A stretch of DNA of 53,411 nt, taken from assembly GCA_947089855.1 (NCBI GenBank), contig CAMUML010000027.1:1-53411 (forward strand). The letters run 5' to 3'. Below the pieces are notes generated by a model. The model had not been told where the DNA came from and made no database searches. It was given only the letters and a program-made list of their open reading frames with translations. Positions within the stretch are counted from its first letter, which is position 1. Each line of letters begins with the position of its first letter. Source of the DNA: an uncultured Eubacterium sp. (GTDB taxonomy: Bacteria > Bacillota > Clostridia > Lachnospirales > Lachnospiraceae). This document shows, one piece after another, positions 530 to 6,409 of the stretch. The position numbers and the translations under genes were made by a program.

Positions 530-578
530 AAAAAGGCAGGCTGTATTATTCGCAAGATGTAATACAGCCTGCCTTTTT
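530..578. terminator. Bidirectional Rho-independent terminator
   Basis: A perfect 19-bp stem runs from AAAAAGGCAGG at the left to CCTGCCTTTTT at the right, with an 11-base loop at 549-559. The T run on the right serves the + strand and the A run on the left serves the - strand. Confidence 0.9.
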
Positions 579-1575
<997 letters not shown>

Positions 1576-1601
1576 CTGTCAAAAAGTGTACTTTTTGACA
1601 G
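1576..1601 (+). repeat. Serine-invertase-type crossover site, left copy (core GT)
   Basis: A 26-bp palindrome with arms TGTCAAAAAGT (1577-1587) and ACTTTTTGACA (1590-1600) around the unpaired dinucleotide GT at 1588-1589; one more pair (C1576/G1601) extends it. Two ~12-bp half sites around a 2-bp asymmetric core is the layout of hix/gix sites used by serine invertases, which cut with a 2-base stagger at the core. It starts at the base after the recombinase stop codon. Each half also contains TTGACA pointing outward. Confidence 0.85.
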
Positions 1602-1743
1602 TTAAATGACACAAGATTAGTTTAACATATTTGTCTGTGTAAGTCTATATTTTTTGTAGTTTTTCATGAAAAATTTTTCATGTACAAGTAATTTTTCAAT
1701 AATGACTGCTCTGAAAATATAAATTGACTTAGAATATAGACCT
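1602..1743. promoter_or_regulatory. Putative invertible promoter segment
   Basis: About 142 A+T-rich bases between the two inverted sites. The best promoter on the + strand is TTAACA (1622-1627), an 18-base spacer and TATATT (1646-1651), facing the LRR gene, so the sequenced orientation would be the on state. On the - strand weaker boxes exist, for example TTTCAT with a 16-base spacer and TATAGA (1671 to 1644). The segment centre holds an 18-bp perfect palindrome (1665-1682), and a 9-base element GTCTATATT (1643-1651) recurs inverted at 1733-1741. The sites and symmetry are seen directly; promoter activity and inversion are inferred. Confidence 0.6.
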
Positions 1744-1769
1744 ATGTCAAAAAGTACACTTTTTGACAT
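1744..1769 (-). repeat. Serine-invertase-type crossover site, right copy (core AC)
   Basis: Exact reverse complement of the left site over 24 bp: arms TGTCAAAAAGT (1745-1755) and ACTTTTTGACA (1758-1768) around AC at 1756-1757. The palindrome extends by pairs A1744/T1769 and T1743/A1770. Because the core reads AC here and GT in the left copy, correct pairing of the staggered ends requires inversion, not deletion, of the segment between them. Confidence 0.85.
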
Positions 1770-1824
1770 AAAGTGTATAGAGCGAAGTAAGAGCGGACAA
1801 GGAAAAACATTGAAATTTGTTTTT

Positions 1825-1854
1825 TACTTAACAAAAACGAACAGTGCATATACT
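1825..1854 (+). promoter_or_regulatory. Possible fixed promoter downstream of the invertible segment
   Basis: TTACTT (1825-1830), an 18-base spacer and TATACT (1849-1854). An ACAGT/ACTGT inverted repeat (1841-1845 and 1852-1856) overlaps the -10 box. If active, it would give a basal level of LRR gene transcription in both orientations. The -35 match is poor, so this is tentative. Confidence 0.25.
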
Positions 1855-1921
1855 GTTTGAGAATGTATGGTATGTCAATGCTGTTTGATTACAAAATTTT
1901 AAGGAGAAAGGGGAATGGAAC

Positions 1922-4900
1922 ATGAAATCAATCGTTAAGAGGTGTATGGCATTTATGATGGCGCTGCTTCTTGCAGTTGGAATCGTACTGGATTCTTCCG
2001 GTATCGTCTTCGCAGCGGAAAATGGTACGTTTGGGGATTACAGTTATCATATTATAGATGGTACATACATAGAAATCGTTGACTATTATGGATCAGCTCA
2101 GAGTGTGAATATTCCTTGCGAACTGATTGTTGAGGGTGTTAGTTATCCGATTAAAAGGATAGGAAGTTATGCATTTCATGACTGCAGCAGCCTAGCGAGC
2201 ATCAACATCCCGGAAGGCGTGACGAGCATAGAAAATGGTGCATTTTGTAACTGCAGCAGCCTAGCGAGCATCAACATCCCGGAAGGCGTGACAAGCATAG
2301 AAGCTGATGCATTTCGTGACTGCAGCAGCCTGACGAGCATCGACATCCCGGGTAGCGTGACGAGTATAGGAGTTAGTGCATTTGGTAACTGCAGCAGCCT
2401 GACGAGCATCGACATCCCGGGTAGCGTGACGAGCATAGGAGGTGGTGCATTTGGTGGTTGCTTAAGCCTGACGAGTATCAACATCCCAGGTAGCGTAACG
2501 AGTATAGAAGGGTGGGCATTTAGTAGATGCAGAAGCCTGACGAGTATCAACATCCCGGATAGCGTGACGAACATAGGAGATAGTGTAATTGTAGGCTGTG
2601 GTAGATTAAGCAACATAGAGGTTAATGCAAATAATACAAAGTATGACAGCAGAAATAATTGTAATGCAATTATAGAAACATTATCTGGTTGTCTCCTTGC
2701 AGGCTGTAAAAACACTATCATCCCGGATAGCGTAACGAGCATAGGAGATAATGCATTTTGCGACTGCGGCAGCCTGACGAGCATCCACATCCCGGATAGC
2801 GTAACGAGCATAGGAGATTATGCATTTCACGACTGCAGCAGCCTGACGAGCATCCACATTCCGGATAGCGTGACGAGCATAGGAGGTGGTGCATTTGGCG
2901 GCTGCAGCAGCCTGACGAGCATTCACATCCCGGATAGCGTGACGAGCATAGGAACTGCATTTGGCGGCTGCAGCAGCCTGACGAGCATCCACATCCCGGA
3001 AGGTGTGACGAGCATAGGAAATCATGCATTTAGTAGTTGCAGAAGCCTGACGAGCATTTACATTCCGGATAGCGTGACGAGCATAGGAGACGGGGCATTT
3101 TGGAACTGTAGCAGCTTCACGATTTATGGCAGCAAGAATTCCTATGCCGAGACATTCGCAAAGGATCATAACATACCTTTCAAAATTGTTAGCGAGGGGG
3201 ATGGTGAGACCCCAGGCAGCGTCGGAAGAAAAAGTGTGTGTTACGTTAATTCTGTAGATTCTAACCATATAATTCTGGATGCATTGCCATATGGCGTTGA
3301 TGAGTCGAAGGTGTCCATAGAATCTTTAAAACCTTATGTTGGCAGGTATGCTTATGTTGAATTTGACACATCTATTAGCCCGAAGGTTATTGGCTTCCAA
3401 GGAGTGGAGTCTTCCATTGGAACGATCACGGAATATGTGGAGTTAAATAGTTCGGGAGAGCATGATTTGGTTGAGATCGATCATAAAGAGTATCAGGTGG
3501 GCAATAAGGGTATTTCTATTATTGACGGAAGAAATAGAAGGATTTTGTATCATACAATCAATGATAAAATTGTCGGAATAGAGTTTTTAGAGACGGCCAT
3601 TGGATATTACAATGGAACAACGGAAAATGGAGAAGGAAACAGCGTTACCGTTTCAAACAAGGAATATGATATAAACAGTGCGTCTTGTATTTCGGATAAA
3701 ATTGAAAATGGAAAACCAGTTGTTTTCAGTGTTGGGGCAAAGAATAATAGTGATAAAATCTGTCCGTTTTTATTTGAGATGCAAGAGTTGCAGGGAACCC
3801 CTTCTGTATGGGTATATGTTTCTGATGATACGTTCTCCACAGAAATAGGGCAGGAGTTGGATTTGTATTGTGCTTTACATATTGACGACTATGTGATACC
3901 GAATTGGGAGAAGCCGTCTTTCGCGATAGGAAATGAGAAGCTTGTTTCATTATCGAATTATGAACAAACGGACTTGGGATACCACTGTAAAATAACGGGA
4001 GTCTCTGTTGGGCAGACAACTCTTACGATCACGGATACGGAGACGGGGGTACACCAAAGTTTTCCGATTACGGTAAAGGAAAAATCGGAAACAGTGTCAT
4101 ATACATGCCGCATAAATGAAGTTCCGGATTATACAATCGAAAGTGGATGGGATAAGGGGCTGCAGACGAATATTTATAATGTAAACGGTCTTTATGCCAA
4201 TAAATATAAATATGAAAAAAATGAAGCGGGTGGATATGAAGTTTCATTTAATGTTTACAATACGTTATATATGCATGGCTCTGTAGATGTGTATGACAAA
4301 GATGGACGCTGGATACAAAGTGTAAAAATCAACAAACGGACGGGAGCCACAAGTTTATATGCAACAGAAGAATCGTTGCTATATTTGATTGATGATGCAT
4401 TGCAGAAGAAAACGTTTACCTATGAGGCAACCACGTATACAAAGAAAACAGGGGTCAAGATTTCGGTGCCGGAAGATGGTTATTTTGTGATTTCTACGAA
4501 TTATGCTGATTCGCCCGGAGTGATGCTGTATAACAGCATAGATATGATTATGCTGGGGTTGGATGCAGTTGGTTCTGCCATAGACAAGGTGGATTATAAC
4601 CTCAACCTGGAGAAATATCTGAGTGATGCAAAAGAGAAGGAATTACATGAAGTGCTGCAAAAGTCAATTGAATCCAAAACTAAAAAATTCCTCTCAGATC
4701 AATTGAAAGAAGGAATAACAGCAGGATACGGAGATGCGGCGAATGCAATTGTTTTGCAGGGGAATGAGATTTTAACTGCGGAAAAACTGGGTGAAAATTT
4801 TTATAAGGATGTTATAGGTGCAGGATGGGATGTTATTCAGAATTATATGGGGCCGGCTGGTGCGGCGTTGAAGGTGATGTTTGGAATACAAAAATATACA

Positions 4901-6409
4901 GATTATATCACTCAGATTGGGCAAATCTGTAAAGGAATTTCAAAATCGGAAATTGTTATAAGTACAACATCAGCGCCTACCATACATGGAATTACTGTAA
5001 AGCCAGAGAATCCGGCAGCAGTTGGAGAAGCTGTTTTACAGGTATTCCGCGTATCGGAGAAGGAGGATATAGCGTCCTCTTTAGAAAACGCTGTTGCAGC
5101 ACAAACAGGCCAATATGAAATTTATAATATTTGTTTTACGAAAGATAATGTAGAACAAGAAATAAATACAAATGTAACAGTACGGATACCAATACCGAAA
5201 ACGTTTGATAAGAACAAATCATCTGTTTACCGGCAGGACAAAGATGGATCATGGACAAAGATGGATTCCAGAATTGACGGCAATTATTTGGTTTTTGAAA
5301 CCAATCATTTTAGTTTATATGCAATAGTTAATAATTCTGTGGGGGATGAGGCCACAACCGTTTTGGTTTCGTCAATCACTCTTAATCTGAAAAATGGCGC
5401 GGTAACAGAAAGTGGTTACTTGAAGCTGAATGCTGCAATCGCCCCTTCAAACGCTGCTAATCAAACGCTTCTCTGGTCATCCGACAATCCTTCTGTTGCA
5501 ACTGTTGACCAGACGGGGCTTGTTACAGCGGTTCGCGCGGGCAAGGCAACGATTACCGTCAAGGCACAGGATGGCAGTGGAGTGGAGGCGTCATGTGTTG
5601 TTGAGGTAACTGCCCCTTCAAATGGCGATGGTGACAATTCAGGCGGAGGAAGTTCATCCGGCAGTGGAAATACTTCCACTGGGGGAAGTTCGTCCGGCAG
5701 CGGAAATGCTTCTACCGGAGGAAGTTCATCTGGCAGTGGAAATACTTCCGCTGGGGGAAGTTCGTCTGGCAGTGGGAATGCTTCCGCCGGAGGAAATAGT
5801 TCAAGTGGCGGAGGAAATGGCGCGAATACAGGAGACAGCACTACAGCGCCTGAAACTGGAAATACTTCGATGACTGGCAAGCCAGCTATCAAGATCCTCT
5901 ATTACATTGTGAATTTTGATAAGAATGGTGGTAAGAATCTGAGCCGTCAGAAAATGACATTGTTACAAGATGATTCTTTAGGTATTTTGCCAAAGGTTGA
6001 AAGAAAGAATTACAAATTCCTTGGCTGGTACATGCAGCCGGTTAATGGTAAAAAGGTAAGTCAGAAGACGGTTTTAAATGTTTCAACGACTTTGTATGCA
6101 CGTTGGCGAAAAATCGCAAAACTTTCGAAGGAACAAATCACTTCGTTGAAATCAGAAAAAGCCGGAACTATGGTTGTGAAATATAAAAAATATTCTGACA
6201 TTAAGGGATACGAGATTGTTTATTCTACAAGTAAAAAATTTACAACCGCATCCACGAATCGGGTTGTTGCTGGTTCTGCAGAGAAGACATTAAAGAAGTT
6301 GAAGACAGGTAAAACGTATTATGTTAAAGTGCGTGCTTATAGCGTTGATTCTACAGGCAGGAAGATTTACGGAGACTATAGTAAAGTTCGCAATGTGCAG
6401 GTAAAATAG
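1922..6409 (+). CDS. Large secreted BspA/TpLRR-type leucine-rich repeat protein with Big_2 and InlB-type repeats
   Basis: 1495 residues. A signal peptide (about 1-32, cleaved after FAA) precedes an LRR_5/TpLRR array (about 80-403) of 23-residue repeats such as SLTSIHIPDSVTSIGGGAF, with one irregular repeat near 220-265. A long A+T-rich middle region (about 410-1145) resembles nothing I can name. It is followed by a Big_2 Ig-like domain (about 1147-1232), a Gly/Ser linker of 12-residue repeats (about 1233-1303), an InlB B-repeat (Listeria-Bacteroides) domain (about 1325-1398, ending LYARW) and an Fn3-like end. BspA-type proteins are surface adhesins in other bacteria. No LPXTG or C-terminal membrane anchor is visible, so attachment is unclear. 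AAGGAG lies 5' of the ATG. The gene sits directly behind the invertible segment, so phase-variable expression is likely. Confidence 0.85.
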   Translation: MKSIVKRCMAFMMALLLAVGIVLDSSGIVFAAENGTFGDYSYHIIDGTYIEIVDYYGSAQSVNIPCELIVEGVSYPIKRIGSYAFHDCSSLASINIPEGVTSIENGAFCNCSSLASINIPEGVTSIEADAFRDCSSLTSIDIPGSVTSIGVSAFGNCSSLTSIDIPGSVTSIGGGAFGGCLSLTSINIPGSVTSIEGWAFSRCRSLTSINIPDSVTNIGDSVIVGCGRLSNIEVNANNTKYDSRNNCNAIIETLSGCLLAGCKNTIIPDSVTSIGDNAFCDCGSLTSIHIPDSVTSIGDYAFHDCSSLTSIHIPDSVTSIGGGAFGGCSSLTSIHIPDSVTSIGTAFGGCSSLTSIHIPEGVTSIGNHAFSSCRSLTSIYIPDSVTSIGDGAFWNCSSFTIYGSKNSYAETFAKDHNIPFKIVSEGDGETPGSVGRKSVCYVNSVDSNHIILDALPYGVDESKVSIESLKPYVGRYAYVEFDTSISPKVIGFQGVESSIGTITEYVELNSSGEHDLVEIDHKEYQVGNKGISIIDGRNRRILYHTINDKIVGIEFLETAIGYYNGTTENGEGNSVTVSNKEYDINSASCISDKIENGKPVVFSVGAKNNSDKICPFLFEMQELQGTPSVWVYVSDDTFSTEIGQELDLYCALHIDDYVIPNWEKPSFAIGNEKLVSLSNYEQTDLGYHCKITGVSVGQTTLTITDTETGVHQSFPITVKEKSETVSYTCRINEVPDYTIESGWDKGLQTNIYNVNGLYANKYKYEKNEAGGYEVSFNVYNTLYMHGSVDVYDKDGRWIQSVKINKRTGATSLYATEESLLYLIDDALQKKTFTYEATTYTKKTGVKISVPEDGYFVISTNYADSPGVMLYNSIDMIMLGLDAVGSAIDKVDYNLNLEKYLSDAKEKELHEVLQKSIESKTKKFLSDQLKEGITAGYGDAANAIVLQGNEILTAEKLGENFYKDVIGAGWDVIQNYMGPAGAALKVMFGIQKYTDYITQIGQICKGISKSEIVISTTSAPTIHGITVKPENPAAVGEAVLQVFRVSEKEDIASSLENAVAAQTGQYEIYNICFTKDNVEQEINTNVTVRIPIPKTFDKNKSSVYRQDKDGSWTKMDSRIDGNYLVFETNHFSLYAIVNNSVGDEATTVLVSSITLNLKNGAVTESGYLKLNAAIAPSNAANQTLLWSSDNPSVATVDQTGLVTAVRAGKATITVKAQDGSGVEASCVVEVTAPSNGDGDNSGGGSSSGSGNTSTGGSSSGSGNASTGGSSSGSGNTSAGGSSSGSGNASAGGNSSSGGGNGANTGDSTTAPETGNTSMTGKPAIKILYYIVNFDKNGGKNLSRQKMTLLQDDSLGILPKVERKNYKFLGWYMQPVNGKKVSQKTVLNVSTTLYARWRKIAKLSKEQITSLKSEKAGTMVVKYKKYSDIKGYEIVYSTSKKFTTASTNRVVAGSAEKTLKKLKTGKTYYVKVRAYSVDSTGRKIYGDYSKVRNVQVK
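2160..3118 (+). repeat. Tandem ~69-bp DNA repeats encoding the LRR array
   Basis: About a dozen near-identical units of roughly 69 bp, each encoding one 23-residue LRR. Blocks such as AGCATCCACATCCCGG recur almost unchanged. One irregular unit lies at about 2575-2735. The high identity at DNA level would allow unequal recombination or slippage to change repeat number. Confidence 0.85.
5640..5815 (+). repeat. 36-bp tandem repeats encoding a Gly/Ser linker
   Basis: Four full units and a degenerate fifth encode GGSSSGSGN(T/A)S(T/A) in the LRR protein. Differences between units are mostly silent or T/A swaps. This is a flexible spacer between the Big_2 domain and the C-terminal domains, and a likely site of length variation. 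Confidence 0.8.

What the first reader, a model, noticed from the sequence alone, without database searches (positions are those of the whole stretch)
1576..1769. Compact serine-invertase switch (invertible promoter) in front of a surface LRR protein
Seen: two exact inverted copies of a palindromic site, each with 11-bp arms (TGTCAAAAAGT / ACTTTTTGACA) around a 2-bp asymmetric core (GT at 1588, AC at 1756), 168 bp apart. The left copy begins at the base after the stop codon of a Hin-type serine recombinase with intact S10, D67, R68 and R71. Known: hix/gix sites have the same half site-dinucleotide-half site design, and core polarity dictates inversion. Inferred: the ~142-bp segment flips a promoter for the 1495-residue adhesin-like gene. 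The segment is much shorter than the Hin or Gin segments.
Basis: partly seen in the sequence, partly recalled or inferred. Interest (0 to 1): 0.9.

Follow-up and report, generated by a model that had tools for sequence, protein, structure and literature searches.

The report
Compact flipping promoter switch, apparently OFF
A gut bacterium carries a tiny piece of DNA that can probably be flipped by the enzyme encoded next to it, turning a promoter towards or away from the gene of a large surface protein; in related switches the two ends tend to lie whole turns of the DNA helix apart, which hints at how the enzyme works.

Summary
In detail: two exact 24-bp inverted sites (1577-1600, core GT; 1745-1768, core AC), 168 bp apart, lie between a small serine recombinase and a 1495-aa BspA-type LRR surface protein; no shuffle gave one. 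They belong to a family: 84 distinct inverted pairs from several phyla; with the core left free, partners were 83 inverted to 1 direct. In 37 of 84 pairs a related recombinase lies within 1.5 kb, always reading toward the segment. Four loci lie opposite to their relatives, so the family inverts; for the window itself inversion is inferred. A promoter kept in all five members of its homology cluster (1619-1647, minus strand) points away from the LRR gene: probably OFF. Site spacing is phased at about 10.5 bp (R 0.65 over 45 clusters; 8 held-out pairs, simulated p 0.00015); site-to-gene distance is not. This suggests short-loop synapsis on one helix face. The recombinase does not group with Gin (long branches). 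Verdict: real, a new variant of a known kind (invertible promoter); the helical ruler is the surprising part.

The parts
961..1575 (+). small serine recombinase, 204 aa from ATG 961 (ORF open from GTG 931)
   Evidence: Pfam Resolvase E 2e-27; S10, D67, R68, R71 present; in 37 of 37 cassettes with a related recombinase within 1.5 kb it reads toward the segment, the window included
1577..1600 (+). left recombination site, 11-bp arms around core GT (1588-1589)
1601..1744 (.). 144-bp invertible segment (inversion inferred)
   Evidence: relatives in both orientations
1619..1647 (-). conserved promoter-like TAGACT-17-TAAACT with extended -10 (TG); points left, away from the LRR gene; 18 nt between its -10 and the left site
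   Evidence: present in all five members of the window's homology cluster (window, L052, L059, L089, L091) and in L092 and L099; 16-20 nt is the modal distance in the family
1745..1768 (+). right recombination site, core AC (1756-1757)
1769..1921 (+). 153-nt leader between right site and LRR start codon; holds a weak promoter-like TTAACA-15-TATACT at 1828-1854
   Evidence: read by eye; the scan (spacers 16-18) does not list it
1922..6409 (+). 1495-aa surface protein: BspA-type LRR_5, Big_2, Flg_new; presumed target
1572..1605 (.). left site extended to a longer imperfect stem by bases on both sides; no T-tract follows, so not a canonical terminator here
   Evidence: (I5)
1622..1651 (+). rival promoter-like TTAACA-18-TATATT pointing right (would make the present state ON)
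   Evidence: in the seven loci its -10 reads TATATT in 3, TACAGT or TACATT in 2, CACATA or CATATA in 2

Best explanation
A local phase-variation switch. The recombinase binds the two 24-bp sites as dimers, brings them together over a 168-bp loop (16 helical turns), cuts both at the 2-bp core with S10, and rejoins so that the 144-bp segment is inverted; the core GT/AC lets only the inverted product pair. The segment carries an outward promoter about 18 bp from the left site. As assembled it fires away from the LRR gene, across the end of the recombinase gene (OFF). After inversion it would lie about 18 bp from the right site and transcribe the LRR gene through a 153-nt leader (ON). Shown here: sites, conserved promoter-like element, gene order, and inverted orientation in relatives. 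Inferred: the biochemical steps (from what is known of serine recombinases), that this segment inverts, that this recombinase does it, and the effect on expression.
For: Exact inverted sites, none expected by chance. Same site family in 84 distinct inverted pairs; with the core free, partner cores were AC 83, GT 1, no other. 37 of 84 pairs have a related recombinase within 1.5 kb, all 37 reading toward the segment. Of 51 comparisons between cassettes with similar segment and flank, 13 have the segment opposite to the flank, traced to 4 loci (L087, L150, L162, L209); L087 against 4 relatives with flank scores of 6,752-10,460 bits. The promoter element is present in all five members of the window's homology cluster and in two more loci; over the family the best promoter lies near the site it points to in 60 of 67 segments with a score at least 1 sd above shuffles. 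Site spacing is phased at about 10.5 bp.
Against: No locus of the window's own class was found in the other orientation: the window, L052 and L059 agree. No reads, so no mixed population is shown. By score alone the opposite-strand TTAACA-18-TATATT wins in the window, so in the count (best promoter toward the recombinase in 32 of 37) the window is one of the five exceptions. The G004 locus with a 91% recombinase has lost the cassette; only a half-site remains. Several related recombinases of the genome could share the sites.
Confidence: 0.85

Rival explanations
1. The segment inverts, but the neighbouring recombinase is not the (only) enzyme: a related recombinase acts in trans on several loci, as Mpi does in Bacteroides fragilis.
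For: The genome has an orphan 76% relative on C36 in whose 11-kb stretch no site was found, and 4 to 5 loci with TCTC-type sites without adjacent recombinase. 47 of 84 pairs have no recombinase within 1.5 kb, some perhaps because the contig ends there. Arm position 2, which separates the classes of this genome, is free across the family (A 144, G 96, C 63, T 33 of 336).
Against: In this genome the three outer-base classes (TGTC, TATC, TCTC) are not mixed within a pair, and the window's site abuts its own recombinase gene.
Confidence: 0.25
2. The present orientation is ON: the plus-strand element TTAACA-18-TATATT (1622-1651) drives the LRR gene now.
For: 10 of 12 consensus matches and the best promoter score in the window segment. 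Its -10 is kept as TATATT in L089 and L091.
Against: 3 promoter-like sites found against 3.4 expected in shuffles of the region. Its -10 is weaker in L052 and L059 and lost in L092 and L099, while the minus-strand -10 TAAACT with TG before it is identical in all seven and lies at the family's modal distance from the site.
Confidence: 0.15
3. The repeats are not recombined in this strain: they serve as operator or hairpin at the recombinase gene end, or the switch is locked.
For: The left site lies one base after the recombinase stop codon and extends to a longer stem; the G004 relative has only a remnant.
Against: Both sites are perfect with opposite cores; decay would be expected without use. 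Related cassettes are found inverted. No T-tract follows the left stem.
Confidence: 0.07

Closest known systems
Invertible promoters (invertons) of gut bacteria
   Same: short promoter segment between inverted repeats, often near surface genes; Clostridia-like genomes were reported with a median of 3 invertons (PMC11892184, passages read)
   Different: here a serine recombinase gene often abuts the segment, one site motif runs through several phyla, and spacing is helically phased; the word 'serine' does not occur in the main text of PMC11892184
Mpi and the capsule promoters of Bacteroides fragilis
   Same: serine-type invertase (model name), short invertible promoters, several capsule loci; one global invertase for seven loci (PMC12632263, passages read)
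   Different: P0001 scores 43.8 bits against the 272-bit cut-off of the Mpi model; here a recombinase next to the cassette is common (37 of 84)
Hin/hix of Salmonella and Gin/gix of Mu
   Same: half-site, 2-bp core, half-site; the 26 bp at L234:513-538, at the annotated G-segment boundary of Mu (gix, name recalled), have the right half TTATCCAAAACC, which matches 7 of the 10 fixed positions of TNTCAAAAAGT by my alignment
   Different: much shorter segment (recalled for Hin and Gin); Hin uses a 65-bp Fis enhancer about 100 bp from a hix site (PMC3798978, passages read), for which a 102- to 144-bp segment with a promoter has little room; different clade
Sin / Tn552-type resolvases
   Same: best solved relatives of P0001, on the same side of the tree
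   Different: resolvases delete between direct sites (recalled); here the sites are inverted

Membership tests
invertible promoter (inverton) | inverted repeats that flank a short segment | tested here: met
invertible promoter (inverton) | promoter inside the segment that points outward | tested here: met
   sequence evidence only; two candidate promoters on opposite strands in the window
invertible promoter (inverton) | both orientations exist | tested here: inconclusive
   met for relatives (4 loci); the window's own class only in one orientation
invertible promoter (inverton) | orientation changes expression | not testable with these tools
   needs RNA from locked orientations
Hin/Gin DNA invertases | catalytic S10, R68, R71 of the serine recombinase domain | tested here: met
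Hin/Gin DNA invertases | groups with Gin/phage invertases in a tree | tested here: not met
   apart from Gin and one phage invertase (37-row clade 99/97); only 5 outside rows, long-branch warning
Hin/Gin DNA invertases | Fis-bound recombinational enhancer | not tested
   no search for Fis or its sites was made; room is small in a 144-bp segment
Mpi family (NCBIfam PRK13413) | score above the curated cut-off | tested here: not met
   43.8 against 272 bits
Sin-type resolvases | acts between directly repeated sites | tested here: not met
   the window's sites are inverted, as in 83 of 84 of the family

The most novel reading that the evidence does not exclude
These small recombinases form an enhancer-free class of DNA invertases with a helical ruler: the two sites must lie on the same face of the DNA, whole turns apart (mostly about 11 to 18 turns), so that a tight loop closes synapsis directly, and insertions or deletions in the segment are tolerated mainly in steps of one turn, which also carries the promoter along in 10-bp steps (-10 to site mostly 16-20, else 28-29, 38 or 8). 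The check on geometry that Fis and an enhancer give to Hin would here be given by the loop itself.
Probability: 0.5. Interest if true: 0.75.

Novelty: new variant of a known kind. Interest (0 to 1): 0.62.

Why it matters
Phase-variable surface proteins of gut Clostridia are poorly mapped. A motif this sharp (TNTCAAAAAGT-GT-ACTTTTTGANA with an inverted partner whole turns away) lets one find such switches, and often a candidate enzyme, from sequence alone. The helical ruler makes a mechanistic question testable: whether a serine invertase can work on a loop of 100 to 190 bp without an enhancer, with spacing as the control. Such minimal, directional, short switches would also be useful tools.

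Tried and rejected
Different site specificity of the three outer-base classes in this genome (TGTC, TATC, TCTC): attractive, but arm position 2 is mixed in many pairs elsewhere (37 of 84 pairs have one letter in all four arms), so I do not claim it. A terminator formed only in the OFF state: stems between outer flank and segment end are longer in the observed than in the swapped configuration in 54 loci against 15 (of 83), and a T-tract is plain to the eye at C8 and C23, but in the window no T-tract follows, so it is left out of the window's mechanism. Against the gene-direction call, the stem rule fits 31 OFF and 3 ON loci, fails for 4 OFF and 4 ON, and says nothing for 12 OFF. The gene-direction call itself is rough (longest-ORF rule): OFF 47, ON 7, undecided 30 of 84; there I set the window's promoter by hand to the conserved minus-strand one. 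Phage relatives: four unannotated faecal phage scaffolds with 47-59% recombinases showed no such inverted pair near the gene; of 8 IMG/VR contigs with the site, 2 have a pair. Guide targets for the RNA beside the TnpB-like genes: matches of 15 nt at most in the stretches I held, none compelling. Rfam: no hit at gathering score. Literature: no paper held prints the site core. The two searches on helical phasing listed 10 of 40 and 2 of 2 papers; none of the 10 listed papers holds the phrase 'helical phasing', and I read passages of only one of the 12 (PMC5903667). These searches cover open-licence PMC only. In one search the rows L102 (3 aa as extracted) and L152 (130 aa) were dropped, so 35 of the 37 adjacent recombinases, the window's included, stand in the tree, with those of C36 and C1.

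Full report
What is in the window. The window is the whole contig C27 of a 4.08-Mb, 101-contig genome. A serine recombinase gene (ATG 961, stop 1573-1575) is followed after one base by a 24-bp site, 144 bp of AT-rich DNA, the inverted copy of the site, a 153-nt leader and a 1495-aa protein with BspA-type LRRs, Big_2 and Flg_new domains. Both sites are exact; none of 100 shuffles gave one.

The same site elsewhere in the genome. Ten other places carry the site with two changed outer bases: a pair on C8 (TATC arms, 126 bp apart) beside a 73% recombinase, a short secreted-looking protein without Pfam hit and a protein kinase gene; two pairs on C23 and one on C56 (TCTC arms, 128 bp) in front of a TnpB-like gene; and single sites at the very end of contigs C3 and C64. 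Both C23 loci have glycosyltransferase genes downstream; for C56 the match is below cut-off, and for C3 three scanned proteins gave a thiolase and two without family. Of five recombinase matches, the 76% one on C36 has no site in its fetched 11 kb; the 57% one on C1 lies before a flagellin with two related sites whose core, AT, is self-complementary.

A family across phyla. In the genus, 12 of 13 genomes hold the site with up to one mismatch, in a family sample 24 of 397 (one mismatch; reversed control in 1). In a class sample 36 of 391 match with two mismatches, but the reversed control matches in 20 by my count, so single matches there mean little. From all fetched loci 84 distinct pairs with opposite cores were drawn; that rule already demanded a GT or AC core, and found 2 same-core pairs. 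In a test with the core left free, anchored on an exact site, partners within 300 bp had core AC 83 times, GT once, no other. The arms read TNTCAAAAAGT; positions 3 to 11 are largely set by the search, but position 1 (T in 324 of 336) and the free position 2 are not.

Gene order. 37 of 84 pairs have a relative of the recombinase within 1.5 kb and all 37 read toward the segment; in 32 of the 37 the best-scoring promoter points to the recombinase side. The five exceptions are L067, L119, L150, L162 and the window itself, where the plus-strand element scores higher; L150 and L162 are also two of the four loci found flipped. Of 30 proteins next to or downstream of such sites, chosen by hand, hits include glycosyltransferases, MBOAT, Wzz, a pilin-like VWA protein, Big_2, cohesin and lectin proteins, PGA_cap, but also glutamate dehydrogenase and a sugar-binding protein; 4 had no family.

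Inversion. Segments and flanks were compared between cassettes: 51 comparisons had both, 38 agree and 13 are opposite, and the 13 trace to four loci (L087, L150, L162, L209). L087 is best: its kinase operon matches four others at 6,752-10,460 bits while the segment lies the other way round and its promoter faces the gene. For L150 the matching flank is little more than the recombinase (1,117-1,216 bits). The window agrees with its two comparable relatives L052 and L059, all with the conserved element toward the recombinase.

Which promoter. A minus-strand element, T[AG]GACT-17-TAAACT with TG before the -10, is found in all five members of the window's homology cluster (window, L052, L059, L089, L091) and in L092 and L099. 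Over 84 segments the best sigma-A score, by weights I set myself, exceeds shuffles by 2.05 sd on average; of 67 at least 1 sd above, 60 lie near the site they point to. Distances from -10 to site, for the 63 of the 67 under 60 nt, are 8 (2), 16-20 (47), 28-29 (9), 38 (2), 47, 51, 56; the window counts there with its plus-strand element (93). Its minus-strand element has 18. So the OFF call rests on conservation and geometry, against the score.

The ruler. Spacings cluster near 115, 126, 136, 146, 157, 167, 177 and 188. For 77 pairs up to 200 bp the best period is 10.25 (R 0.65); with one per homology cluster (45) it is 10.55 (R 0.66; Rayleigh at 10.5 about 5e-9); a jitter null reached neither in 5,000. 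Over 500 redraws of one per cluster the R at 10.5 averages 0.65, at least 0.58. With 83 pairs up to 260 bp R peaks at 10.5 (0.58) among the 13 periods tried; one pair of 453 bp is left out. Held out: eight pairs in which neither site is exact, so that they are not expected from the scan, have 137, 137, 178, 148, 136, 209, 135, 136; all lie within 1.5 bp of whole turns of 10.5 (simulated p 0.00015; six distinct values, 0.0037). In making this set I counted one of two identical 209-bp pairs of one genome, left out a 497-bp pair, and set aside five pairs with one exact site (170, 138, 176, 136, 135), which lie 0.5 to 2.5 bp off whole turns. Control: distances from site to start codon show no 10.5 period (44 copied values, R 0.095, p 0.67; 67 recomputed, R 0.03, p 0.94, highest R from 9 to 12 is 0.22). 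Common descent could keep a length but hardly a ladder of lengths. The promoter ladder may simply follow from one-turn indels inside the segment.

What the enzyme is. Pfam Resolvase; closest solved structures the Sin entries and gamma-delta and Tn3 resolvases ahead of the DNA-invertase entries; Mpi and XisF models far below cut-off; PHROG 'DNA invertase' E 3.5e-52, a broad phage family that fits the opposite view. In a tree 35 site-associated recombinases and those of C36 and C1 form one clade (99/97), apart from Gin, a phage invertase and Tn21 TnpR, on the side of two resolvase-like phage-record proteins (98/96), with a long-branch warning. The half-site nevertheless resembles that of Mu; a resemblance to hix is recalled, and the search for its letters found no paper on it.

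Judgement. Works like an invertible promoter: likely. Is Hin-type: not by this tree. Novel: the kind is known; the cross-phylum motif with a local enzyme and the helical ruler were not found in the literature searched (listings; passages only of PMC11892184, PMC3798978, PMC12632263 and PMC5903667).

Noticed in passing
L005:92-1420, L007:4304-5671, L008:6088-7386, L009:5063-6385 (own genome, C3, C23, C23, C56): TnpB-like proteins sit directly behind the TCTC invertible sites (4 of 4 matches in the genome), ahead of glycosyltransferase genes at least on C23. The TnpB zinc ribbon is kept, but the three RuvC acidic positions read A, P or Q, and K in these four (my reading), so they look nuclease-dead, like TldR regulators (recalled). 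A phase-variable RNA-guided regulator of surface glycan loci is possible.
   Followed up: partly
L005:1430-1690, L007:5680-6000, L008:7396-7660, L009:4800-5060: Downstream of each TnpB-like gene lies a conserved stretch (around GGCATTAGAAGGCAG and GGGAGCGAAGC); 11 of 48 predicted pairs show a change on both sides in at least one of 4 sequences; no Rfam hit. It may be a guide RNA scaffold. No target was found.
   Followed up: partly
L017:5062-5209 (C1:106062-106209): A recombinase and two related sites before a flagellin gene; the core AT is self-complementary, so core polarity could not dictate inversion there.
   Followed up: no
G000:C3:3-26 and G000:C64:22478-22501: Two contigs end at a TCTC site; they may be the two sides of one cassette broken in assembly by mixed orientations, or by near-identical paralogous segments.
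   Followed up: no
L048 around 3900-3920 (G004, E. plexicaudatum): Behind a 91% recombinase only a half-site (TGTCAAAAAGT) remains before unrelated sequence: the cassette was lost.
   Followed up: no
84 cassettes: Assemblies seem biased to OFF (47 OFF, 7 ON, 30 undecided by a rough rule).
   Followed up: partly
window 530-578: Perfect 19-bp inverted repeat with 11-bp loop, A-run and T-run at its ends, upstream of the recombinase; terminator-like to the eye (not in the list, whose loop limit is 8).
   Followed up: no
L224:7935-8093 and L229: Two of 8 IMG/VR contigs with the site carry inverted pairs 139 and 138 bp apart; the switch may ride on phages or prophages.
   Followed up: no
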